Source: a virus
DNA: 53,953 nt
Strand: one strand, 5' to 3'
IMG/VR virus record: IMGVR_UViG_3300019135_000051
Span: 1 to 53,953 of that record
Of the stretch, positions 1 to 41,953 are shown in pieces. Position numbers and translations under genes: made by a program. Numbering within the stretch: position 1 is the stretch's first letter; each line of letters begins with the position of its first letter. The notes beneath the pieces were generated by a model. The model did not search any database. It saw only the letters and a list, made by a program, of their open reading frames with translations, and was not told the DNA's origin.

Positions 1-1140
1 CTAAAGTGACTTTGAGCGTTTTTGCTTCATCATTTTCTCGAAGTTGTCAGCTGCGTCTTTTTGCATGTCCGGTAATACATGGCTGTAAACGTCCATCGTG
101 ATGCCCACCCGACTATGCCCCAGGCGCTCGGAAACCACCTTGGGGTGTTCACCCAGCTGCAGGAGCATGGTGGCATGGGTGTGTCGCAGATCGTGGAAGC
201 GAATGTACGGCAAGCCACTCCTTTTGATGATCCGCTCGTAGTGCCGTAGCAAATTGCGGGGGTCCTGCGGCCGACCGTCATCATAACAGACCACAAGGTC
301 GTGATCCTGGTAACCCGCACCGTATTGTATGCGCAGCGCATTTTGCTTAGCTCGGTGAGACTTCAGTTCCTTGACAACGAACTGAGGGATGGCAATTCGC
401 CGTTTCGCGCTTTTAGTCTTCGGCTCCTGGAAGATGATCCCGGAATTTGCGGGACGATATAGAGTCTGTTGCACGCTGATCCGAGACTGCTCAAAGTCAA
501 CATCTTTCCAACGTAGACCTAGGATTTCCCCTCGGCGCATACCGGTATAAATGGCCAGTACAAAAGCGATGTAATACTTGTCGTCCTTGGCATAAGACAG
601 AAACTCGTTCGCCTGTTCCGCAGTCCAGGTAACGATTTCTTTCTGGATAAGACGGGGAGGATCAACGTGCTCCATGATGTTCTTGGGAACCAACTGCCAT
701 TTGACGGCCTGATTCAGGGCTTTGCTGAGCACGGAGTGCAGATACTTGATGTAATCAGCTGAAAGCCCCTCTTTTTGCAGCTCGGCCAAATACTTTGTGA
801 CGCGGAGCGGAGTCAGCTTGTCCAACTCGTGATGGCCAAGAGAGGGGATGAGTCTGCTCCTGACTGCAATCTCGTGGTTTGTATAGGTGGACTGGCGGAG
901 ATTGGTCTTTGCGTAGTTCTCTAACCAAAATTCCAGGTAGCTTGCCAAGGTTTGCTTTTTCGAAATGACGAGCTCACCGCGTTCAAACTGTGCAATCATC
1001 TCTGCACATGCAACCTCGGCCTCCTTTTTGGTTTTGAAACCGGAGCGTGTTATTTGCCGACGCTTTCCTGTCTCGGGATCGGTTCCGAGGGAGACTGCAA
1101 ACGACCAGGTGCTTCCGCGTTTTCTGAAGTGTCCCTTCAT
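1..1140 (-). CDS. int: Tyrosine recombinase (prophage integrase)
   Basis: Site-specific recombinase that inserts and excises the prophage. An N-terminal arm-binding domain (about residues 1-55, opening MKGHFRKRG as in many Bacillota integrases) is followed by a SAM-like core-binding domain (about 60-160) and the catalytic domain. Visible catalytic residues are R202 (in TGMRRGE), a Lys in EPKTKS (about 241-243), H316 and R319 (HDLRH), H342 (LGHS) and Y352 (DVYSH). I start at ATG 1140 rather than 1149 because the AAAGGA ribosome site is better spaced and family members begin there. The stop codon is the first base triplet of the window, so attL should lie just to the left. The tRNA-Val 3' end at 42,267-42,311 is the matching right end. 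Confidence 0.96.
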   Translation of the reverse strand: MKGHFRKRGSTWSFAVSLGTDPETGKRRQITRSGFKTKKEAEVACAEMIAQFERGELVISKKQTLASYLEFWLENYAKTNLRQSTYTNHEIAVRSRLIPSLGHHELDKLTPLRVTKYLAELQKEGLSADYIKYLHSVLSKALNQAVKWQLVPKNIMEHVDPPRLIQKEIVTWTAEQANEFLSYAKDDKYYIAFVLAIYTGMRRGEILGLRWKDVDFEQSRISVQQTLYRPANSGIIFQEPKTKSAKRRIAIPQFVVKELKSHRAKQNALRIQYGAGYQDHDLVVCYDDGRPQDPRNLLRHYERIIKRSGLPYIRFHDLRHTHATMLLQLGEHPKVVSERLGHSRVGITMDVYSHVLPDMQKDAADNFEKMMKQKRSKSL

Positions 1141-1219
1141 AGCATCCAATCCTTTCTGTAAATGATGGGAATATATGTTCGGTTTCAGGGCGAAAGAGAG
1201 CCCCGAAACGAAGAACCAA

Positions 1220-1651
1220 TCAGAACTTTTTCAAGTGGGCCACATCTCCCGGCACTCCATAAATGGCTGCTGCCTCACGGATTGTCATGCCAGAGTGTCG
1301 ATGTTCATGCAGAAGGCTGTCAGGAATCAACAGCTCAACCGCGAATTCGTTAGCCTCACGTTCGACTCGGTCGATGGACTGAAACGTATTCGCCCGCAGG
1401 AATGGCACGTTAACCTTGGGATGCAGGATGCGGTGTCCGAGCTCATGTGCGATGACGAACCTCTGCAGGTGTTCGTCCAGGTTACGGTTGACGTGAATCA
1501 TGGGTATACGCTTGCTGATGTTAAAGTAGCCCCAAATATTTTTGAAGTCTTCATACAAAATAAGAATGCCTTTCTGGCTCGTGATGGTCGCCGGGTCGTT
1601 GGTGCCGTGTCGCTTGACGAGCCGTTGCACGATCTGCTTAATAGGCTGCAT
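1220..1651 (-). CDS. immA: ImmA/IrrE family metallopeptidase
   Basis: A 143-residue protein with the zinc-protease motif HELGH at residues 69-73 and the third-ligand region REANEFA around residue 99. In ICEBs1 and related elements, ImmA cleaves the cognate XRE repressor in response to DNA damage, triggering induction. It lies directly downstream of the repressor gene on the same strand, with only 20 bp between them and a GGAGAG ribosome site, so the two are probably cotranscribed. Its target is inferred to be the 171-residue repressor at 1672-2187. Confidence 0.93.
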   Translation of the reverse strand: MQPIKQIVQRLVKRHGTNDPATITSQKGILILYEDFKNIWGYFNISKRIPMIHVNRNLDEHLQRFVIAHELGHRILHPKVNVPFLRANTFQSIDRVEREANEFAVELLIPDSLLHEHRHSGMTIREAAAIYGVPGDVAHLKKF

Positions 1652-1671
1652 GTGTGCATCTCTCCAGCTCG

Positions 1672-2187
1672 TTATTTTCTATGTTTTTTCGGAGTGAACT
1701 TCTTCTTTGCCATCATCTTGGCAAGCCTGAGTGATTGCTCCAGAGAGGAGCGCAGCAACTCCATTTCTTCCTCGTCGATTGGCTCCCCATGGAAGGCGAG
1801 CGCCTGGTTGCTCTCCAGATCGGCCATGATGCGTTCCAGGTCTTTTACGATGTCGCGTTCTTCTTTAGATGTCAAAACAGTTTTAGGCTTAAGTTTTCGT
1901 TCCAGTTCTTTTTGTAGGTCCTCAAAAAATGACTCATCAGTGTAGCCGTCAGCATACATGTCGTCCGAAAGCATCAATACGCCTTCTGGGTGCGGCAATC
2001 CAAGTAAAAAGTCAACTGTGACCCCGTGAAATCGGGCTAGAGCCGCAAGCTTCGTGTGATCAGGATTGGAGATTCCGTTTTCCCAAGCATTGTAACGAGC
2101 GCGTTTAACGCCAATTGCTTCTGCAACTTGTTCTTGAGTAAGGCGTTTGTAATTCCTTAGTGCAGCAAGTCGTTGGCCCAAATTCAT
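1672..2187 (-). CDS. XRE-family phage repressor (CI-like)
   Basis: A 171-residue protein with an N-terminal helix-turn-helix of the Cro/CI (XRE) type (about residues 4-60, including LTQEQVAEAIGVKR and YNAWENG). The C-terminal half is acidic, then helical and lysine-rich (KKKFTPKKHRK). Divergent from the Cro-like gene with the operators between them, and followed by immA, so it is almost certainly the lysogeny repressor. It has no LexA/S24 self-cleavage domain, consistent with inactivation by the ImmA protease instead. Confidence 0.92.
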   Translation of the reverse strand: MNLGQRLAALRNYKRLTQEQVAEAIGVKRARYNAWENGISNPDHTKLAALARFHGVTVDFLLGLPHPEGVLMLSDDMYADGYTDESFFEDLQKELERKLKPKTVLTSKEERDIVKDLERIMADLESNQALAFHGEPIDEEEMELLRSSLEQSLRLAKMMAKKKFTPKKHRK

Positions 2188-2213
2188 CGTAAAAACCGAC
2201 CTTTCCTCGTGTG

Positions 2214-2265
2214 GATAAAAAATTTATCAAACTCGCTTGACGATAAGATTTTTATCAAATATAAT
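2214..2265 (+). promoter_or_regulatory. Divergent control region: operators O1, O2 and early promoter
   Basis: Two 15-bp palindromes of the form GATAA-N5-TTATC lie at 2214-2228 and 2242-2256. A sigma-A-type promoter reads rightward: -35 TTGACG at 2237-2242, a 17-bp spacer, and -10 TATAAT at 2260-2265. Operator O2 covers the whole spacer, so a repressor bound there would block polymerase. The leftward promoter for the repressor gene is not clear to me. Confidence 0.85.
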
Positions 2266-2294
2266 CAGATTACGACAAGGAGGTGAATCGTGAG

Positions 2295-2513
2295 ATGGCA
2301 AAAAGACGGCAACAGCTAATCGAGTGCCGTGAAGCGAAAGGATCAAGAGATCAGGTTGCCTCGGAACTTGGCATTTCAAAGGTCTATCTTAGGATGATTG
2401 AAACAGGTGCTTTGAAACCTGGTCGCGACCTAATGATAAAAATGTCTGGCTTTTTTGAACAACCGCTCGATATACTTTTCCCAGACCTGTTTGAAGGAGA
2501 GAGGTCTAATTAA
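2295..2513 (+). CDS. Cro-like XRE regulator
   Basis: A 72-residue helix-turn-helix protein (QVASELGISKVYLRMIETGALKP is the HTH core). It is the first rightward gene after the operator-promoter region. An upstream in-frame GTG at 2283 lies inside the AAGGAGG ribosome site, so ATG 2295 is the better start. By position it should be the Cro-type antagonist of the repressor and the first early gene. The gene is followed by three more copies of the operator (2527-2622). Confidence 0.88.
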   Translation: MAKRRQQLIECREAKGSRDQVASELGISKVYLRMIETGALKPGRDLMIKMSGFFEQPLDILFPDLFEGERSN

Positions 2514-2526
2514 GTGTGCTTACTAT

Positions 2527-2622
2527 GATAAAATTATTATCGCTACGAAATGAGTATACTGGATAAAATTATTATCGTCAACATGGTTTTTCTTTTTTGT
2601 AGTGGCTGATAAGAATTTTATC
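2527..2622. promoter_or_regulatory. Operators O3, O4, O5
   Basis: Three further 15-bp GATAA-N5-TTATC palindromes lie at 2527-2541, 2562-2576 and 2608-2622. The first two are identical (centre AATTA without the flanks). They occupy the gap between the cro-like gene and the excisionase-like gene and so probably bind the same repressor or Cro protein. The last copy lies 22 bp upstream of the start of the next gene. Confidence 0.8.
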
Positions 2623-2644
2623 AAAACCAAAGGAGGGGGACCTC

Positions 2645-2848
2645 ATGGAACAGACGCAGCCCATCCACAATGGTCTGCCAGCAATATTGACTGCTCAGGA
2701 CATAGCAAATTATCTCCGGATATCGGAGCGACGCGCCTATGAGCTTATGGACTTGAAATCATTCCCTCTGATCCGACTTGGTCGTTCCAAACGGGTGAAC
2801 AGAGATTCGTTTTTAAACTGGTTACAACAGAACGAAAGAAATGAGTAA
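2645..2848 (+). CDS. Excisionase-family HTH_17 DNA-binding protein
   Basis: A 67-residue protein with a single winged MerR-like helix-turn-helix (about residues 14-62: LTAQDIANYLRISERRAYELM, then FPLIRLGRSKRVNRDSFLNWL). This is the HTH_17/excisionase signature. A very strong AAAGGAGGGGG ribosome site precedes the ATG. It may bend DNA for integrase-mediated excision or act as an early regulator; small proteins of this family do both, and the sequence does not decide. Confidence 0.85.
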   Translation: MEQTQPIHNGLPAILTAQDIANYLRISERRAYELMDLKSFPLIRLGRSKRVNRDSFLNWLQQNERNE

Positions 2849-2853
2849 TCGTG

Positions 2854-3123
2854 ATGGACAAACGCGCTATCTGGCTCGCGGTAAACTCCGCACACGGCGA
2901 CCGTCTTGTACAAATTGCCCAAGAGCATTGCCGTTTAGCTCGTGAGGTCGCCGCAAACGAATACCTTTCACACCAGGATAAGGAAACGTATAAGGCACGC
3001 ATCGAGCAGCTACGTAGGGAGCGGGATCAAATCCTTACACAGTTTGAAGAGGAGGTGAGCACGGATGGACAAGACCTGGAAACAGCGACAGATGGAAGTG
3101 CTGATGGCGAGCTTCGAGCATGA
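2854..3123 (+). CDS. Hypothetical early phage protein
   Basis: An 89-residue protein. The middle (about 25-65) is a charged helix (KETYKARIEQLRRERDQILTQFEEEV). The last 20 residues are rich in D, G, S and A and overlap the next gene by 59 bp. A GTG at 2851 directly precedes the chosen ATG. I do not recognise the family. Confidence 0.55.
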   Translation: MDKRAIWLAVNSAHGDRLVQIAQEHCRLAREVAANEYLSHQDKETYKARIEQLRRERDQILTQFEEEVSTDGQDLETATDGSADGELRA

Positions 3124-3238
3124 GACGGCGTTGATGGCGTCATGGCCAGGAGGGAAGGAAGCAGCAGAGGGTTACGCTCAGCGCTTGCTGGCTTACGACA
3201 CAAAGCAAAAGGCAAGGGAAAAGGGGGAAAACCGGTGA
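3065..3238 (+). CDS. Small hypothetical protein (57 aa)
   Basis: A short gene reading MDKTWKQRQM... to ...KAREKGENR. It is supported by a GAGGAGG ribosome site about 9 bp before ATG 3065 and by its 4-bp GTGA overlap with the next gene. It is charged and probably helical. It overlaps the end of the preceding gene in another frame. Function unknown. Confidence 0.6.
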   Translation: MDKTWKQRQMEVLMASFEHETALMASWPGGKEAAEGYAQRLLAYDTKQKAREKGENR

Positions 3239-3483
3239 GGGCATACGGGTTCAGTGAAGCACAAAAGCGGATCGAGCGTTTGAAGAGGATTTACCGGATC
3301 ATGAAAGCGACCCATCCCCAGGACGGGACATGGGATTGGTGGATTAAAACAGAAATCACTGAGCTCAAACGAGAGATGGCCACTACTGCGAACAGTGACC
3401 ATTGGGCAACACGATTCCGAAAAGCGATTTCCCTTAGCGTATCACGATTATTGGTGTCGGGCAAGGAGGGGTCAACACTATGA
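3235..3483 (+). CDS. Hypothetical early phage protein (82 aa)
   Basis: Starts at GTG 3235 inside the stop of the previous gene (GTGA overlap) behind AAGGGGG. The frame is open further upstream, but that part overlaps the 57-residue gene and is biased (KGKGKGG). The protein is basic and helical with a Trp-rich centre (DGTWDWWIKTE). It ends in an ATGA overlap with the next gene, so the small genes here are translationally coupled. Function unknown. Confidence 0.6.
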   Translation: MRAYGFSEAQKRIERLKRIYRIMKATHPQDGTWDWWIKTEITELKREMATTANSDHWATRFRKAISLSVSRLLVSGKEGSTL

Positions 3484-3656
3484 GCGCCTATAAAGAAATG
3501 GCGATTTCTGATCGAGAGGATCAAATTGTTGATATTTGCGACCAATGCTCGGGTGGCATACATAAAGGTCAACAGGTCTGGAAGGTCGGAAGCGAGATTT
3601 ACTGCTGCAGAGATTGCTTGCAAACCGGGTTGCAGATTGTGACGTTGCGGATTTGA
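3480..3656 (+). CDS. Small zinc-ribbon protein (58 aa)
   Basis: Begins in an ATGA overlap with the preceding gene. Two cysteine knuckles, CDQC (residues 20-23) and CCRDC (about 43-47), suggest one structural zinc ion, as in small phage zinc-ribbon proteins. The TGA stop (3654-3656) contributes the first nucleotide of the ribozyme that follows. Confidence 0.7.
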   Translation: MSAYKEMAISDREDQIVDICDQCSGGIHKGQQVWKVGSEIYCCRDCLQTGLQIVTLRI

Positions 3657-3716
3657 GTCGAAACCGGGGCCACGCCCCTGGTCGCAGGGAGCTGACCGTC
3701 CCTGCCTGATGAGACT
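3656..3716 (+). ncRNA. Hammerhead ribozyme, type II topology
   Basis: All conserved hammerhead core elements are present in the right order. Helix II strand AGTC is at 3656-3659 and GAAA at 3660-3663. Helix III is formed by 3663-3669 with 3676-3682 (seven pairs including the A15.1-U16.1 pair). The cleavage-site C is 3683. Helix I is a closed 7-bp hairpin, 3684-3690 with 3699-3705. CUGAUGA is at 3706-3712, and the second helix II strand GACT at 3713-3716 pairs perfectly with 3656-3659. Helix II is the open one, which defines type II. Predicted self-cleavage lies between 3683 and 3684. It would separate the upstream small-gene mRNA from the downstream genes. Confidence 0.85.
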
Positions 3717-3821
3717 GGTCATACATATGCGAGGCAAAGCGGGAGCGCCCGGGGAGGCGCACGGCTGTCGGAGAGGTAGGGCCGGCGGCGGCCTCGTGAC
3801 TAAACGGAAAGGAGGGATAAA
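3717..3821 (+). other. GC-rich structured leader with hairpin
   Basis: The 105 bp between the ribozyme and the next gene are very GC-rich and can fold. The clearest hairpin is GGCCG (3780-3784) with CGGCC (3789-3793). A short upstream segment (3650-3652) could pair with 3718-3720 and extend ribozyme helix II beyond an internal loop. If the ribozyme cuts, this would be the new 5' region of the downstream message. No gene seen. Confidence 0.45.
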
Positions 3822-4037
3822 TTGGAGTATTTAAAACTGGTGCATACGCAGGAAGAGCTTGAATCAGCGGACGATAATTGTCTTCTGGAACATTTCGGTG
3901 TCACTTGCATGCGATACGTGCACGGGGAGGTACCACACCGTTATGTGAATCAAGTGAAAACGATCATTCTTCAAAGGATTTCCAGATCAAAAGAAAAAGA
4001 CTCCGCGGCAACGGAGTCTCAAGCAAAGCACTTATAA
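3822..4037 (+). CDS. Hypothetical protein (71 aa, TTG start)
   Basis: Starts at TTG 3822 after AAAGGAGGGAT. It is a small acidic-to-basic helical protein (HTQEELESADDNCLLEHFG; then VNQVKTIILQRI). It is the first gene after the hammerhead ribozyme. Family not recognised. Its last codons contain a strong hairpin (3998-4019). Confidence 0.65.
   Translation: MEYLKLVHTQEELESADDNCLLEHFGVTCMRYVHGEVPHRYVNQVKTIILQRISRSKEKDSAATESQAKHL
3998..4019 (+). other. Stem-loop at the end of the 71-aa gene
   Basis: Perfect 8-bp stem AGACTCCG (3998-4005) with CGGAGTCT (4012-4019) and loop CGGCAA. There is no U-tract, so it is not a classical terminator. It may stabilise or process the mRNA between the two small genes. 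Confidence 0.5.
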
Positions 4038-4085
4038 TTGCCTTCATTTTACAACTGTGGAGGCACAAACACAAGGAGGGTGCTC

Positions 4086-4550
4086 ATGAACATCACACTG
4101 AACATCGAAGCCGGCACTCCGGCTGAGCTGCAGGAAGCGATCGTCGGTTTGGCCGGTATCGTTGGATTCGTACAAGACGGCCCAGCGATCCAGCAGACGA
4201 AAAGCGATCAGGAAAAACCGAAACGTAATTCTCGCACGACAACCAAAACGGACAAGCCAACGGATTCTCAGCCAGACGATGAGGAGCAACAGTCCGCAGA
4301 GCAGATCTCTGAAACAGAAAAAGAGTCTGCAGAAGAAGTAACCAGCCATGAAACGGGAGATGGGCCAGGCGATAGTGAGGAACACATTCCGACTGTTGTG
4401 GAGCTGCGCGCTGCAGCACAGGAAAAAGGGAAAACGCCAGAGGGAAAACAGGCGATCAGGGAACTGCTTAACAAATTCGGCAGCAAATCAATTTCTGATG
4501 TTCCCGAGAAGAAGCGAGCGGCATTCCTTGCTGAGTTGGAGGCGCTATGA
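4086..4550 (+). CDS. Hypothetical phage protein with acidic linker
   Basis: A 154-residue protein starting at ATG 4086 behind AAGGAGGG. The N-terminal 30 residues are a short folded segment (NITLNIEAGTPAELQEAIVGL). Residues about 40-100 are a low-complexity linker rich in E, S, T, D and Q. The C-terminal 50 residues (VELRAAAQEKGKTPEGKQAI, LLNKFGSKSISDVPEKKRAAF) look like a compact helical domain. Proteins of this layout occur beside DUF2800 genes in Bacillota phages. Function unknown. It overlaps the next gene by ATGA. Confidence 0.6.
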   Translation: MNITLNIEAGTPAELQEAIVGLAGIVGFVQDGPAIQQTKSDQEKPKRNSRTTTKTDKPTDSQPDDEEQQSAEQISETEKESAEEVTSHETGDGPGDSEEHIPTVVELRAAAQEKGKTPEGKQAIRELLNKFGSKSISDVPEKKRAAFLAELEAL

Positions 4551-5743
4551 CACAGCAGGCACACGCTGAGCGTGCTCACGCTTTACTCGGCGCTTCCAAG
4601 GCGGAGCAGTGGATCAACTGCCCACCGAGCGCCAGGCTACAGGAAAGCATCCCTGACAAGCGGAGCGAATACGCAGAAGAGGGCACGACGGCCCATGAGC
4701 TCGCGGAGATCAAACTCCGCCGCCGTTTAACCATCTGCAACGCTGCCGAACGGGAACGGCTTGATGAGGCGCTCCAGAAGGTAAAAGACAGCCCGCACTA
4801 CAGCACCGAAATGGAGAACGCCATTCAGGAGTACATCGAGCTGGTCGGGGAGCGCTTCATGGCCGCGAAGGCGAGATCAAGTGACGCAGTTGTGCTGCTG
4901 GAAGAACGCCTGGACTTCTCAGAGTGGGTCCCGGACGGGTACGGCACTGGTGACGTGGTACTGATCGCGGACGGTGTTCTGGAAGTGATTGACCTGAAAT
5001 ACGGAAAGGGTGTACCGGTGAGCGCTGTTGGCAATTCGCAGATGCGGTTATATGCTCTCGGTGCTTGGTCGGCTTACAGCTATCTGTACGACATCCGTGA
5101 AGTGATGATGACAATCGTACAGCCGCGTCTCGATAACGTCAGCACGGACTCAATACCGATCGACGAGCTGCTGGGTTGGGCAGAGGCCGTTGTCAAACCA
5201 GCAGCCGAGTTGGCTCACCGCGGCGAGGGGGGTTACAAGGCCGGCGATCACTGTCGTTGGTGCAAGGTGAAGGGCAACTGCAGGGCGAGGGCGGACGCCA
5301 ATTTGGCGGCGCTGGCTTACGAGTTTAAAGATCCGGCCCTAATGACGAACGAAGAAATTGGGTCGGTCCTGTTCATCACAGAACAACTCAAGACATGGGC
5401 GAAAGATGTGGAAGAATACGCCTTCGAGCAGGCCAAGGCCGGCAACAAGATCCCGCAGTGGAAACTCGTCGAGGGCCGCAGTAACCGGGCGATCACCGAC
5501 AAAGATGCGGCATTGGCTGCCCTGGAAGCGGCCAAGTTGGATCCGGATAAATACCTGAAGCCGCAGGAGCTGCTCGGTATCAGCGAGCTGGAGAAGCGCA
5601 TCGGCAAAAAAGAGCTGGCATCCTTGCTTGATGGCCTGATCATTAAACCGCCTGGTAAACCGGTACTTGTGCCTGAAACGGACAAGCGCCCGGAGCTAAA
5701 CAGCATTGAAGAAGAATTCGCAAATATCGATTTGGAGGATTGA
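4547..5743 (+). CDS. DUF2800 protein, RecB-like nuclease fold
   Basis: A 398-residue phage replication or recombination protein. The family signature is clear: WINCPPSARL (22-31), EEGTTAHELAE (44-54), then the PD-(D/E)XK-like core VLEVIDLKYGKG (about 145-156), and a cysteine cluster CRWCKVKGNC (about 235-245) that in related RecB/Cas4-type proteins holds an iron-sulfur cluster. It probably acts as a DNA nuclease with the DUF2815 protein encoded next to it. It overlaps the previous gene by ATGA and is followed after 6 bp by the DUF2815 gene. Confidence 0.9.
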   Translation: MTQQAHAERAHALLGASKAEQWINCPPSARLQESIPDKRSEYAEEGTTAHELAEIKLRRRLTICNAAERERLDEALQKVKDSPHYSTEMENAIQEYIELVGERFMAAKARSSDAVVLLEERLDFSEWVPDGYGTGDVVLIADGVLEVIDLKYGKGVPVSAVGNSQMRLYALGAWSAYSYLYDIREVMMTIVQPRLDNVSTDSIPIDELLGWAEAVVKPAAELAHRGEGGYKAGDHCRWCKVKGNCRARADANLAALAYEFKDPALMTNEEIGSVLFITEQLKTWAKDVEEYAFEQAKAGNKIPQWKLVEGRSNRAITDKDAALAALEAAKLDPDKYLKPQELLGISELEKRIGKKELASLLDGLIIKPPGKPVLVPETDKRPELNSIEEEFANIDLED

Positions 5744-5749
5744 TTCTGA

Positions 5750-6346
5750 ATGGCAATCGACAATACCGTAACAAAAGTGATCACTGGTAAGGTACGCCTC
5801 TCGTATGTCCACGTTTTTGAGCCGCAAAAAGATGACCAAGGAAACGACAAATACAGCACGGCCATCCTCATCCCGAAGTCCGATAAGGAGACACTCCGAA
5901 AAATCAAGGCAGCTGTAGATGCAGCCATCGAGCTCGGCAAAAGCAAATGGGGAGGCAAGGTTCCTCCGAACCTGAAAAAGCCGCTGCGCGACGGCGACGC
6001 GGAGCGTCCGGACGACGAGGCATATGCCGGTCACTTCTTCCTGAATGCGACCAGCAAGAACAAGCCCGGAATCGCCAAACCAATCGGCAAAGGCCCTGAC
6101 GGCAAACCAAAGTTTCAAGAAATCACGGACAGCACCGAAGTGTACAGCGGGTGCTATGCCAAAGTGAGTCTGAACTTTTACCCATTTGACGCTAAGGGGA
6201 ACCGCGGAGTGGCAGCTGGACTTAACAACATTGTGAAGGTACAGGATGGTGAGTTCCTGGGCGGCCGCGCAAGCATCAACGATGAATTTGCCGATGAGGA
6301 ATTCGACGACCTTGGTGATGGGGACGAGGACGATTTTCTCAGCTAG
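5750..6346 (+). CDS. DUF2815 single-stranded DNA-binding protein
   Basis: A 198-residue protein of the phage DUF2815 family, considered a T7 gp2.5-like OB-fold single-strand binding protein. It starts with the typical GKVRLSYVHVFEP and has FKYSTAILIPKSDK-like strands. It ends in a strongly acidic tail (DEEFDDLGDGDEDDFLS), the usual partner-binding tail of single-strand binding proteins. It is coupled to the DUF2800 gene upstream and lies before the polymerase. Confidence 0.88.
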   Translation: MAIDNTVTKVITGKVRLSYVHVFEPQKDDQGNDKYSTAILIPKSDKETLRKIKAAVDAAIELGKSKWGGKVPPNLKKPLRDGDAERPDDEAYAGHFFLNATSKNKPGIAKPIGKGPDGKPKFQEITDSTEVYSGCYAKVSLNFYPFDAKGNRGVAAGLNNIVKVQDGEFLGGRASINDEFADEEFDDLGDGDEDDFLS

Positions 6347-6358
6347 TGCACAACTACC

Positions 6359-6386
6359 AAGGGGGATTCGGCAGCGGGTCCCCTTT
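6359..6386 (+). terminator. Weak terminator-like hairpin after DUF2815
   Basis: AAGGGGGA (6359-6366) can pair with TCCCCTTT (6379-6386) with one bulged G, followed by CATTTC. The short U-rich tail suggests at most partial termination after the highly expressed single-strand binding protein. Confidence 0.4.
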
Positions 6387-6422
6387 CATTTCAAACAAAT
6401 TCCGGGAGAGGGAGGTATTGCG

Positions 6423-6719
6423 TTGAAGACGGACGGGGTGCTTTTAACACCAGCTATTCTGAGCGTTATGGAAGAGCGGAAACGACAGGACGACAAGTGG
6501 GGCGAGCAAAATCATGAGCCAACCGTATGGCTTGGCATTTTGGGGGAAGAGTTCGGGGAACTTTGTCAGGCGGTAAACGAAACGTGGTTTGACAATGGGC
6601 CGGAGGAACGCAAAAAGGGTGGTTACGAAAACGTGCGAGCGGAGGCGGTGCAGGTCGCGGCCGTGGCGGTCTCCCTAATCGAATGTCTGGATCGCCGGCA
6701 TGGTGGGGAATCTTCATGA
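6423..6719 (+). CDS. MazG-like nucleotide pyrophosphohydrolase
   Basis: A 98-residue all-helical protein. LGEEFGELCQAV (about 35-46) and AEAVQVAAVAVSLIE (about 73-87) match the two metal-binding helices of MazG-like phage proteins, though the usual ExxD of the second helix is degenerate (EAVQV). These enzymes hydrolyse NTPs or dNTPs, or lower ppGpp. The start is TTG 6423 behind GGGAGG; upstream in-frame codons overlap the DUF2815 gene. It ends in an ATGA overlap with the polymerase gene. Confidence 0.75.
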   Translation: MKTDGVLLTPAILSVMEERKRQDDKWGEQNHEPTVWLGILGEEFGELCQAVNETWFDNGPEERKKGGYENVRAEAVQVAAVAVSLIECLDRRHGGESS

Positions 6720-8677
6720 CCGTCCTCCAAATCGACCTTGAGACATACAGCAGCGTTGATTTGACCAAGTGCGGTGTGTATCGGTACGTTGAAGCCCCAG
6801 ATTTTGAAATTCTGCTTTTCGCGTACGCCTATGATGACGAACCTGTACAGGTTATCGACCTGACAGCCTTTGAGGATCTTCCGGAGCGGGTCCGGCATGA
6901 CCTGACCAATCCCGCCGTGATCAAAACAGCCTACAATGCCAACTTCGAGCGGACCTGTATCTCCAAGCACTTCGGGATTGAGTGCGACCCTCTCCAGTGG
7001 CGCTGCACAGCCGTCCATGCACTCGCGCTGGGGCTGCCCGGCTATCTGGAAGGCGTTGCAGAAGTATTAAAGCTTGAAGCCCAGAAGGACGCGCGCGGTA
7101 AAAACTTGATCAAATATTTCTCCGTTCCGTGCAAGCCAACAAAAGCGAATGACGGGAGGACACGTAACTATCCGTACCATGATCCAGAGAAATGGGAGCA
7201 ATACAAAGAATACAACCGGCAGGACGTCGTCGTGGAACGGGAGGTCCGCCGGAAGCTGGAACGGTTCCCATTGCCGGACCATGAGTGGAAGCTGTGGGCG
7301 TTGGACCAGCGGATCAATGACCGAGGCGTCCGGCTCGATCCGGTTCTATTCCGACAAGCGATCGCTTGCGATGAGCAGTACGAGGCCCGGCTGGTGGCCG
7401 AGGCAAAAGAGATCACGGGATTAGACAACCCGAACAGTCTTCAGCAGCTCAAGGAGTGGCTGGCAGAGCGCGGACTGGAGACACCCGATGGCCTCTCCAA
7501 AGAGCATATGCCAGTCTTGCTCGACCGAGCGCCGGACGATGAGACACGACGTGTCTTGGAGCTGCGGCAGGAGATGAGCAAGACCAGCGTCGACAAGTAT
7601 AACGCAATGGAGCGCAGCATGTGTGCTGATGAGAGAGCCAGAGGGCTGCTCCAGTTCTGCGGAGCAAACCGCACCTGGCGATGGGCCGGGCGGATAATCC
7701 AGGTACAGAACTTGCCACAAAACAAAATTGAGGATCTGGCCATGGCGCGAGAGACACTCCGGAACGGCGATTTCGAAATGTTGGAGCTGATGTTCGGGCC
7801 TCCTCCTTTTGTACTCTCCCAATTGATCCGGACGGCGTTCATCCCGTCCCGGGGCTGCAGGTTCATCGTGTCAGACTTCGCGGCCATTGAAGCCCGCGTC
7901 ATTGCCTGGCTGGCAAACGAGCACTGGGTGCTTGATGTGTTCCGTGGGCACGGCAAGATCTACGAAGCCACGGCCGCGCAGATGTTCAAGGTCCCTTTCG
8001 AGACGATCACAAAAGGCCATGCAAACTATCAGTTGCGGGCGAAGGGGAAAGTGGCCACACTCGCCTGCGGATACCAGGGCGGACCGAATGCTTTGATTGC
8101 CATGGGAGCACTCAAGAGCGGGATTTCAGAGGAAGAACTACCGGCACTGGTTAAGCAGTGGCGAGAGGCCAACCCGAATATCGTCAACCTGTGGTACGCC
8201 GCAGAAGATGCTGCAGTTACCGCTGTGCGCGAGAAAACGACCGTCAAGTTGGCTCATGGAGTCCAGTACCGGTATGCCCCCGGAGTATTGTTCGCCGACC
8301 TGCCCAGTGGTCGCAGCTTGGCGTACGTCAACCCGCGGATCAAGCCTGATCCGAAATTCGGTAAGGACGGTCTCGTGTTCGACGGCATGGATCAAGTGAA
8401 GAAGAAGTGGATGTCTCACCGGACATACGGCGGCCGGCTGGTGGAGAACCTTGTTCAGGCAATCGCCCGGGATTGTTTGGCCGAGAGCTTGATGCGACTG
8501 GATTCGGAAGGATACAAGATCGTGATGCATGTACACGATGAAGTTGTACTTGATGTGTCGGTCGGGATTGGATCTGTGGAAAAGGTAGTGGAAATAATGG
8601 GACGCCCAATTGTATGGGCGCCAGGGTTACCGCTGAGTGCTGCCGGTTTTGAGTGCAATTTTTACATGAAGGATTAA
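6716..8677 (+). CDS. Phage DNA polymerase, family A
   Basis: A 653-residue replicative polymerase. The N-terminal 3'-5' exonuclease has its DxE motif at D7/E9 (IDLETYSS). The polymerase domain shows motif A DFAAIEAR starting at D387, motif B with KVATLACGYQGG, and motif C HVHDEVVLD with D608. I begin at ATG 6716, which overlaps the MazG stop (ATGA). The gene ends convergently, by 4 bp, into the minus-strand TIR-like gene, which interrupts the replication operon. Confidence 0.96.
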   Translation: MTVLQIDLETYSSVDLTKCGVYRYVEAPDFEILLFAYAYDDEPVQVIDLTAFEDLPERVRHDLTNPAVIKTAYNANFERTCISKHFGIECDPLQWRCTAVHALALGLPGYLEGVAEVLKLEAQKDARGKNLIKYFSVPCKPTKANDGRTRNYPYHDPEKWEQYKEYNRQDVVVEREVRRKLERFPLPDHEWKLWALDQRINDRGVRLDPVLFRQAIACDEQYEARLVAEAKEITGLDNPNSLQQLKEWLAERGLETPDGLSKEHMPVLLDRAPDDETRRVLELRQEMSKTSVDKYNAMERSMCADERARGLLQFCGANRTWRWAGRIIQVQNLPQNKIEDLAMARETLRNGDFEMLELMFGPPPFVLSQLIRTAFIPSRGCRFIVSDFAAIEARVIAWLANEHWVLDVFRGHGKIYEATAAQMFKVPFETITKGHANYQLRAKGKVATLACGYQGGPNALIAMGALKSGISEEELPALVKQWREANPNIVNLWYAAEDAAVTAVREKTTVKLAHGVQYRYAPGVLFADLPSGRSLAYVNPRIKPDPKFGKDGLVFDGMDQVKKKWMSHRTYGGRLVENLVQAIARDCLAESLMRLDSEGYKIVMHVHDEVVLDVSVGIGSVEKVVEIMGRPIVWAPGLPLSAAGFECNFYMKD

Positions 8678-41605: not shown

Positions 41606-41728
41606 TAGCGGTGCGAACTGACTTTGGTATAACTTGATGCCAAACGGATTGTCCAGTATTCCTAAATGAATCAACGTTTGAAAAAAGAAACTTTTGACCA
41701 AGCTATTAGCAAAAGGAGCTGGTTATAA

Positions 41729-41953
41729 ATGTTTGGATTGGGCAAGCCCAGATCACGGTTTGGTAAGTGGTTGGACCGGAACGGGATCACACAAGAGGAG
41801 TTATCAAGAGAAAGTGGGGTGAATAAGTCAACAATCAGCCGAATATGCAGCGGTGATGCCTTTAAGCCCTCAATACGGAGTGCAGCCAAAATTATCAAGG
41901 CACTCCGGAACAGAGGCAAGGATGTGACCATGGATGATTTTTGGTCGATGTAG
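41729..41953 (+). CDS. XRE-family regulator
   Basis: A 74-residue helix-turn-helix protein (ITQEELSRESGVNKSTISRI) behind AAAAGGAGC. Divergent from the FtsK module, so its likely target is the intergenic region with the inverted repeat. Confidence 0.85.
   Translation: MFGLGKPRSRFGKWLDRNGITQEELSRESGVNKSTISRICSGDAFKPSIRSAAKIIKALRNRGKDVTMDDFWSM

What the first reader, a model, noticed from the sequence alone, without database searches (positions are those of the whole stretch)
3656..3716. Complete type II hammerhead ribozyme inside the early phage operon
All invariant core bases and three helices are present: CUGAUGA 3706-3712, GAAA 3660-3663, cleavage-site C 3683, helix I 7 bp, helix III 7 bp, helix II 4 bp open. 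The chance of all of these coinciding is tiny. Bacterial and prophage hammerheads are known, but few have a defined role. Here it would split the early mRNA right after the stop codon of a zinc-ribbon gene and leave a structured 5' end on the downstream message.
Basis: partly seen in the sequence, partly recalled or inferred. Interest (0 to 1): 0.88.

Follow-up and report, generated by a model that had tools for sequence, protein, structure and literature searches.

The report
Phage hammerhead ribozyme plus conserved leader RNA
A Brevibacillus-type phage carries a self-cutting RNA (a type II hammerhead ribozyme) exactly between two early genes, followed at once by a second conserved folded RNA that the RNA-family library does not hold on that strand; the pair sits in front of the phage's DNA-replication genes and probably cuts the messenger RNA there.

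Summary
Window 3656-3721 holds a complete type II hammerhead (HHR). Rfam Hammerhead_II matches end to end at 31.8 bits (E 3e-6; curated cut-off 37). No match of this quality occurs in 6,553 shuffles. Relatives keep the structure through compensatory changes, and some exceed the cut-off.

The HHR is only half of the feature. Six nucleotides after its core starts a conserved ~90-nt three-way-junction RNA, element E (3719-3808), directly before the next gene's ribosome-binding site. E occurs once per phage record, 0.2-1.3 kb before replication genes of several types. Of 51 strong E loci, 25 have an HHR upstream and 18 another conserved RNA ('ALT'). E has weaker homologues across Bacilli chromosomes, where Rfam's BsrC is modelled on the opposite strand; wobble-pair counts say E's strand is the folded one.

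Best explanation: the HHR cuts the early transcript before the replication block and gives that mRNA a processed 5' end headed by E. Cleavage was not tested. The HHR is a known kind; I found no description of the HHR+E unit.

The parts
2237..2265 (+). promoter-like site (TTGACG-17-TATAAT) that could drive the early operon
   Evidence: 11 of 12 consensus matches; consensus match only. No + strand promoter-like site between 2395 and 5028, no + strand terminator-like site in 1900-6700
3480..3656 (+). 58-aa cysteine-rich ORF upstream; its stop codon UGA 3654-3656 touches helix II
   Evidence: no Pfam or PHROG family
3656..3721 (+). type II hammerhead ribozyme, including pseudoknot tail
3663..3682 (+). 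helix III hairpin (7 pairs), would form the 3' end of the upstream cleavage product
   Evidence: helix conserved and covarying in relatives
3683..3684 (+). predicted cleavage site, after C3683
   Evidence: position fixed by the hammerhead core (U16.1-H17); cleavage not tested
3684..3705 (+). helix I hairpin with loop GCUGACCG; new 5' end of the downstream mRNA
   Evidence: all six inner pairs show changes on both sides in relatives
3717..3721 (+). GGUCA, pseudoknot partner of UGACC 3693-3697 in loop I
   Evidence: 20 of 21 family members have 4-6 pairs; over all 113 hammerheads mean 4.25 bp against 3.26 with shuffled tails
3719..3808 (+). element E: three-way junction, P1 3729-3735/3791-3797, P2 3745-3749/3756-3760, P3 3764-3771/3782-3789 with conserved loop AGAGGUAGGG 3772-3781
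   Evidence: 92.8 bits with model R1; covariation counts
3806..3815 (+). ribosome-binding site (GGAAAGGAGG) directly after E
   Evidence: read from sequence
3822..4037 (+). 71-aa ORF (TTG start), first gene after E
   Evidence: no family; similar ORFs after E in the L056 and L113 loci
4547..8677 (+). replication block: DUF2800 nuclease-like protein, ssDNA-binding protein (Enc34 family), DNA polymerase A

Best explanation
The site is a self-cleaving type II hammerhead that processes the early polycistronic phage transcript at one fixed point ahead of the replication gene block. The upstream mRNA would end at C3683 in the helix III hairpin with a 2',3'-cyclic phosphate. The downstream mRNA would begin at G3684 with a 5'-OH on the helix I hairpin, followed by element E and the ribosome-binding site of the next gene. 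E is a conserved 5' leader whose 5' side is usually supplied by a structured RNA module, here the hammerhead. I infer that the cut separates the two parts of the operon and that the structured 5'-OH leader protects, or tunes translation of, the replication mRNA. Shown here: structure, conservation and covariation, linkage to E, position before replication genes. Inferred: cleavage, the ends produced, the effect on stability or translation.
For: All invariant core bases, three helices and the loop I/tail pseudoknot; 0 of 6,553 shuffles; RF02276 end to end, E 3.1e-6, relatives over the cut-off; 13 of 21 pairs with changes on both sides, 0 of 500 shuffles. E conserved and covarying, once per phage record, directly before a ribosome-binding site and 0.2-1.3 kb before replication genes of several types. 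25 of 51 strong E loci have an HHR upstream. No + strand promoter-like or terminator-like site between the early promoter and the HHR. Precedents: active prophage hammerheads that cut polycistronic RNA, and HHphage of haloviruses HF1/HF2, 13 nt before an early helicase gene with the mapped transcript 5' end within 3 nt of the cleavage site (PMC3088659).
Against: No experiment. Score is under the Rfam cut-off. Full-length folding of HHR+E prefers a fold that pairs helix I with E (-68.2 against -60.4 kcal/mol, pseudoknot not counted), though the HHR is complete before that part of E is transcribed and the alternative is predicted in only 5 of 18 relatives. 26 of 51 strong E loci lack an intact HHR directly upstream, so the HHR is not indispensable to E. 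Most DUF2800 relatives lack the HHR, many of them fragments.
Confidence: 0.62

Rival explanations
1. A chance or decayed hammerhead-like sequence without activity.
For: Score below the Rfam cut-off; 4 of 18 consensus hammerheads tested in 2011 were inactive in vitro (PMC3088659); two relatives (L156, L187) carry an insertion of about 30 nt in the core.
Against: 0 of 6,553 shuffles; core invariant and helices covarying in relatives; pseudoknot present.
Confidence: 0.06
2. The hammerhead cleaves but is a passenger of gene cassettes: it marks the end of an inserted small gene and its cut has little effect; E alone is the functional leader.
For: In L208 and L216 a gene with its own HHR lies between ALT and E. 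Upstream genes vary, and the HHR abuts their stop codons (20 of 21 within 2-6 nt of GAAA). E exists without an HHR in 26 of 51 strong loci.
Against: In 23 of 25 HHR-E pairs the spacing is a constant 4-15 nt from core to E. Where the HHR is absent, another structured RNA usually takes its place.
Confidence: 0.2
3. HHR and E form a switch: E's fold (by pairing with helix I, or by binding a host factor) decides whether the HHR cuts.
For: In the window GGUAGGG of E's loop is complementary to CCCUGCC of helix I over 7 pairs, and the free-energy minimum uses it. E is related to an RNA locus found associated with Hfq in B. subtilis (PMC3574147).
Against: The complementarity is lost in relatives with the UGCCGG helix I, and the alternative fold is predicted in 5 of 18. 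E's loop is conserved without any HHR.
Confidence: 0.1

Closest known systems
Type II hammerhead ribozymes of bacteria and phages (Rfam RF02276; Perreault et al. 2011, PMC3088659)
   Same: Core, helix order with open stem II, loop I/tail pseudoknot, place between phage genes
   Different: Score below the cut-off for this copy; linked to a second conserved RNA, E; stop codon of the upstream gene fused to helix II; one copy at a fixed place
HHphage of haloviruses HF1/HF2 (PMC3088659)
   Same: Hammerhead just before early replication genes; the mapped transcript start suggests cleavage in vivo
   Different: Archaeal virus, variant core, start codon 13 nt downstream, and no companion like E is mentioned
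Hammerhead groups in prophages (Agrobacterium, Azorhizobium; PMC3088659)
   Same: Hammerheads cutting polycistronic phage RNA between genes
   Different: Here a single copy at a fixed site; arrays occur in other phages collected here (up to 20 RF02276 matches in one contig)
BsrC (Rfam RF01410), for element E
   Same: Same chromosomal loci, same core sequence; 14 of 16 chromosomal-type E homologues carry the BsrC match antisense
   Different: Opposite strand; E has P1 and sits in a phage mRNA leader; the window scores 29.7 bits against a cut-off of 38
RAGATH candidate RNAs (RNAs found near genes that neighbour twister and hammerhead ribozymes; from memory)
   Same: Structured RNA found beside hammerheads in phages
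   Different: No RAGATH or other Rfam family matches E on this strand or ALT

Membership tests
Hammerhead ribozyme, type II (RF02276) | Invariant core C3-U4-G5-A6-N7-G8-A9 and G12-A13-A14, A15.1-U16.1, H17 | tested here: met
   CUGAUGA 3706-3712, GAAA 3660-3663, U3682, C3683
Hammerhead ribozyme, type II (RF02276) | Three helices around the core, I and III closed by loops, II open | tested here: met
   7, 7 and 4 pairs; 93.7% of cells paired and compensatory changes in 22 sequences
Hammerhead ribozyme, type II (RF02276) | Loop I/tail pseudoknot or another I-II tertiary contact | tested here: met
   UGACC x GGUCA, 5 pairs; 4-6 pairs in 20 of 21 relatives
Hammerhead ribozyme, type II (RF02276) | Bit score at or above the curated cut-off of 37 | tested here: not met
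   31.8 bits. A cut-off is a filing rule, not a structural feature; relatives before E score 38.1, 38.8 and 43.4
Hammerhead ribozyme, type II (RF02276) | Self-cleavage 3' of H17 with 2',3'-cyclic phosphate and 5'-OH | not testable with these tools
   needs in vitro or in vivo cleavage assay
BsrC (RF01410), for element E | Match to the family model above its cut-off of 38 bits | tested here: not met
   29.7 bits, on the opposite strand
BsrC (RF01410), for element E | Homology with the bsrC loci of Bacilli chromosomes | tested here: met
   E model finds matches in 104 of 399 Bacilli genomes (prophage copies included); BsrC lies antisense at the same place in 14 of 16 chromosomal-type loci scanned; 0 of 148 genomes of another class
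BsrC (RF01410), for element E | RNA made from the strand modelled by Rfam | tested here: not met
   G-U pairs 16-20% of P2+P3 cells on the E strand against 0-0.2% A-C: the folded RNA is on the E strand. No expression data.

The most novel reading that the evidence does not exclude
E is a new class of phage leader RNA, related to a chromosomal RNA of Bacilli, that works best at a 5' end made by processing. Phages therefore place an interchangeable cutter in front of it: a type II hammerhead, a tRNA-like unit, or the conserved three-hairpin RNA 'ALT' (GCGGGCUUCGGCCCUGC..GGAGGUUCGAACCUCC), which would itself be an undescribed self-cleaving ribozyme or nuclease substrate.
Probability: 0.22. Interest if true: 0.85.

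Novelty: new variant of a known kind. Interest (0 to 1): 0.55.

Why it matters
Hammerheads have been known in bacteria and phages since 2011, but few have a defined job. Here one recurs at a fixed, meaningful place, in front of the replication block, joined to a second conserved RNA, and other structured RNAs stand at the same spot in its place. That makes 'why do phages carry hammerheads?' directly testable, in an isolated phage (Brevibacillus phage Emery). It also yields a structured RNA that Rfam does not hold on this strand, and suggests that the BsrC family is modelled on the wrong strand.

Tried and rejected
Relatives through the two flanking ORFs: the 58-aa ORF found none and the 71-aa ORF one weak hit; DUF2800 as bait worked. 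RF02276 over 47 DUF2800-phage records found the HHR in 2 relatives (L003, L039) and a weak third match (L052, 23.4 bits) that lacks the core CUGANGA with its helices and was rejected. E as a tRNA or tmRNA: ARAGORN and Rfam give nothing in the window. E's chromosomal homologues as leaders of cold-shock genes in general: true position in several Brevibacillales genomes (about 180-190 nt before a CspA-type gene), but others have different neighbours and hairpins resembling terminators downstream, so this is not general. HHR/E mutual pairing as a switch: strong in the window, not conserved. The pseudoknot shuffle test is uninformative inside the close family (4.90 against 4.68) and informative only over all 113 HHRs. 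My automatic count of upstream modules missed several ALT copies and counted one false HHR (L198); I corrected both by reading the printed sequences. Folding energy of the HHR or of HHR+E is not significant against shuffles (z -1.66 and -0.76) and is not used as evidence. A literature search for a DUF2800 RNA motif found nothing. The first script for helix counts failed on an indexing slip and was redone.

Full report
What was checked. The window was read at 3640-3740. In addition, GGUCA at 3717-3721 is the exact complement of UGACC at 3693-3697 in loop I. A pseudoknot of four or more pairs between loop I and the tail after stem II is what Perreault et al. (2011, PMC3088659) report for the majority of type II hammerheads; in their test ribozyme, mutations predicted to disrupt it drastically reduced cleavage and the compensatory mutation restored it. 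A descriptor scan finds this one site in the window and none in 6,553 dinucleotide shuffles at 5/5/4 base pairs. The Rfam Hammerhead_II model matches from end to end at 31.8 bits, E 3.1e-6, below the curated 37, so a default Rfam scan is silent.

Relatives. With the DUF2800 protein as bait, two phage contigs (L003, L039) have the hammerhead 0.8-1.0 kb before the same gene, as in the window. DNA-pattern scans then gave the same family in further viral contigs and in Brevibacillus laterosporus and B. fulvus genomes. On 22 sequences, 93.7% of helix and pseudoknot cells pair, 13 of 21 pairs show changes on both sides, and no shuffle reaches these values. In the 21-member family anchored on the core, helix I switches as a whole between GCAG/CUGC and UGCC/GGCA, helix III varies and stays paired, and the pseudoknot changes on both sides together (UGACCxGGUC, UGGCCxGGCC, UAACCxGGUU). 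This is conservation of a structure, not only of a sequence.

The second RNA. Comparing the 3' flanks showed a conserved block that starts about six nucleotides after the core. Aligned over 22 loci it folds as a three-way junction: P1 closing P2 and P3, with an almost invariant P3 loop AGAGGUNGGG. 97.2% of cells pair, 47 cells have changes on both sides against 17.9 in shuffles, and 0 of 500 shuffles reach it. In the window this element, E, is 3719-3808, 92.8 bits. A permissive Rfam scan shows no match on this strand. E is found once in each of the 23 virus records where it was found at all, directly before the ribosome-binding site of a small gene whose identity varies.

What stands before E. 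Of 61 E loci with distinct flanks, 51 score 64 bits or more. Of these 51, 25 have a hammerhead, 23 of them 4-15 nt from core to E. Eighteen have a different conserved RNA, ALT: GCGGGCUUCGGCCCUGC, a variable hairpin, then GGAGGUUCGAACCUCC. The other eight are two disrupted hammerheads (L156, L187), two with tRNA-like sequence by eye (L155, L159), three near-identical ones after an HNH-like ORF (L134, L136, L141), and L004 with a diverged ALT-like sequence. The default ARAGORN scan calls no tRNA in L155 or L159. A scan for ALT alone gave 18 viral loci, all of which have E downstream, one of them (L216) as a remnant. In L208 a gene lies between ALT and E, and that gene is followed by a hammerhead that again stands directly before E. 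The simplest reading is that E wants a processed 5' side. This is inference.

Where it sits in the phage. In the 11 loci examined, E lies 0.2-1.3 kb before replication or recombination genes, whatever their type: DUF2800 nuclease, ssDNA-binding protein and DNA polymerase A; YqaJ-like nuclease and RecT; or SbcC-like ATPase and helicase (types outside the window are read by eye, those of the window by Pfam and PHROGs). The window has a promoter-like site at 2237-2265, no + strand promoter-like site between 2395 and 5028, and no + strand terminator-like site from 1900 to 6700, so the hammerhead is probably inside one transcription unit. The stop codon of the upstream ORF touches or overlaps helix II: in 20 of 21 family members it ends 2-6 nt before GAAA.

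Isolated phage. Brevibacillus phage Emery (KC595516.1) has HHR and E at 41716-41864, 84% identical, in the gap between gp73 and gp74 where no feature is annotated, ahead of DNA polymerase gp81.

Chromosomal homologues. The E model also finds weaker, full-length, mostly single copies in Bacilli genomes (104 of 399 genomes with a match, prophage copies included; 0 of 148 genomes of another class). In 14 of 16 such loci scanned, Rfam reports BsrC at the same place on the opposite strand. G-U pairs make up 16-20% of P2+P3 cells on the E strand, while A-C mismatches, which would be G-U pairs on the other strand, make up 0-0.2%. The folded RNA is therefore on the E strand. In B. subtilis bsrC (ydaG-ydaH) is the first entry in a published table of Hfq-associated putative sRNAs, ratio 53.6 (PMC3574147), and another copy lies between cspC and ydeB (PMC8208703). 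The passages I read do not say which strand was measured.

Mechanism. Hammerhead chemistry (established knowledge) gives a 2',3'-cyclic phosphate at C3683 and a 5'-OH at G3684. The upstream mRNA would end in the helix III hairpin; the downstream mRNA would start in the helix I hairpin followed by E. In Bacilli a 5'-OH on a hairpin should resist RppH- and RNase J1-dependent decay (general knowledge, not tested here), so the cut should make the stability of the two parts independent. Precedent: HHphage of haloviruses HF1/HF2 lies 13 nt before an early helicase gene, and the mapped transcript 5' end is within 3 nt of its cleavage site (PMC3088659).

Caveat on folding. The free-energy minimum of HHR+E in the window pairs helix I with E's P3 region (-68.2 against -60.4 kcal/mol for the two separate structures, pseudoknot not counted). 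Loss of helix I is predicted in 5 of 18 relatives, and the complementarity is not kept in the subfamily with the UGCCGG helix I, so I do not treat it as the design. The hammerhead is complete before that part of E is transcribed.

Verdict. Observation confirmed and extended; interpretation correct as far as it went. The hammerhead is a member of a known kind by every structural feature tested, short only of the Rfam score cut-off; activity is untested. The HHR+E unit, its fixed place before replication genes, and the exchange of HHR for ALT at the same spot are what I have not found described.

Noticed in passing
L128 4076-4145, L131, L140, L147, L148, L152, L154, L184, L189, L191, L208, L211 and others: ALT: a conserved three-hairpin RNA (GCGGGCUUCGGCCCUGC, variable hairpin, GGAGGUUCGAACCUCC) before E in place of the hammerhead; no Rfam match in L130 at E up to 5. 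All 18 viral loci found by its own pattern have E (or a remnant) downstream. Possible new self-cleaving or processed RNA.
   Followed up: partly
L161-L182 (chromosomal E homologues), RF01410: Rfam BsrC seems to be modelled on the strand opposite to the folded RNA: 14 of 16 loci carry it antisense to E, and wobble pairs occur only on the E strand. Several copies have hairpins like terminators 3' of the E strand.
   Followed up: partly
L085 and L106 (IMGVR_UViG_3300033551_000003, 42.6-58.8 kb): One phage contig with 20 type II hammerhead matches, all on one strand within 16 kb; other arrays in L059, L071, L073, L089, L092, L099, L102, L110.
   Followed up: partly
113 hammerheads in the collected loci: In 68 of 113 the stop codon of an upstream ORF ends 2-6 nt before GAAA; often UAG overlaps the helix II strand (UAGUCGAAA). 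Ribosome termination and ribozyme folding may compete.
   Followed up: partly
L156, L187 and L126, L135: Hammerheads before E with an insertion of about 30 nt inside the core (L156, L187) or one extra base after the core (L126, L135); possibly inactive or variant ribozymes.
   Followed up: no
L216 7305-7349 (- strand): E reduced to its P1 stem (P2 and P3 deleted) behind an intact hammerhead: a natural deletion that could help to test what E does.
   Followed up: no
L058 2450-2702, L078 1184-1445, L104 2471-2736: BsrG (type I toxin-antitoxin RNA) matches on three of the Brevibacillus-type phage contigs.
   Followed up: no
window 1-2513: Integrase-like, peptidase-like and repressor-like ORFs diverge from the early operon (read by eye): probably a temperate phage of a Brevibacillus-like host.
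   Followed up: no
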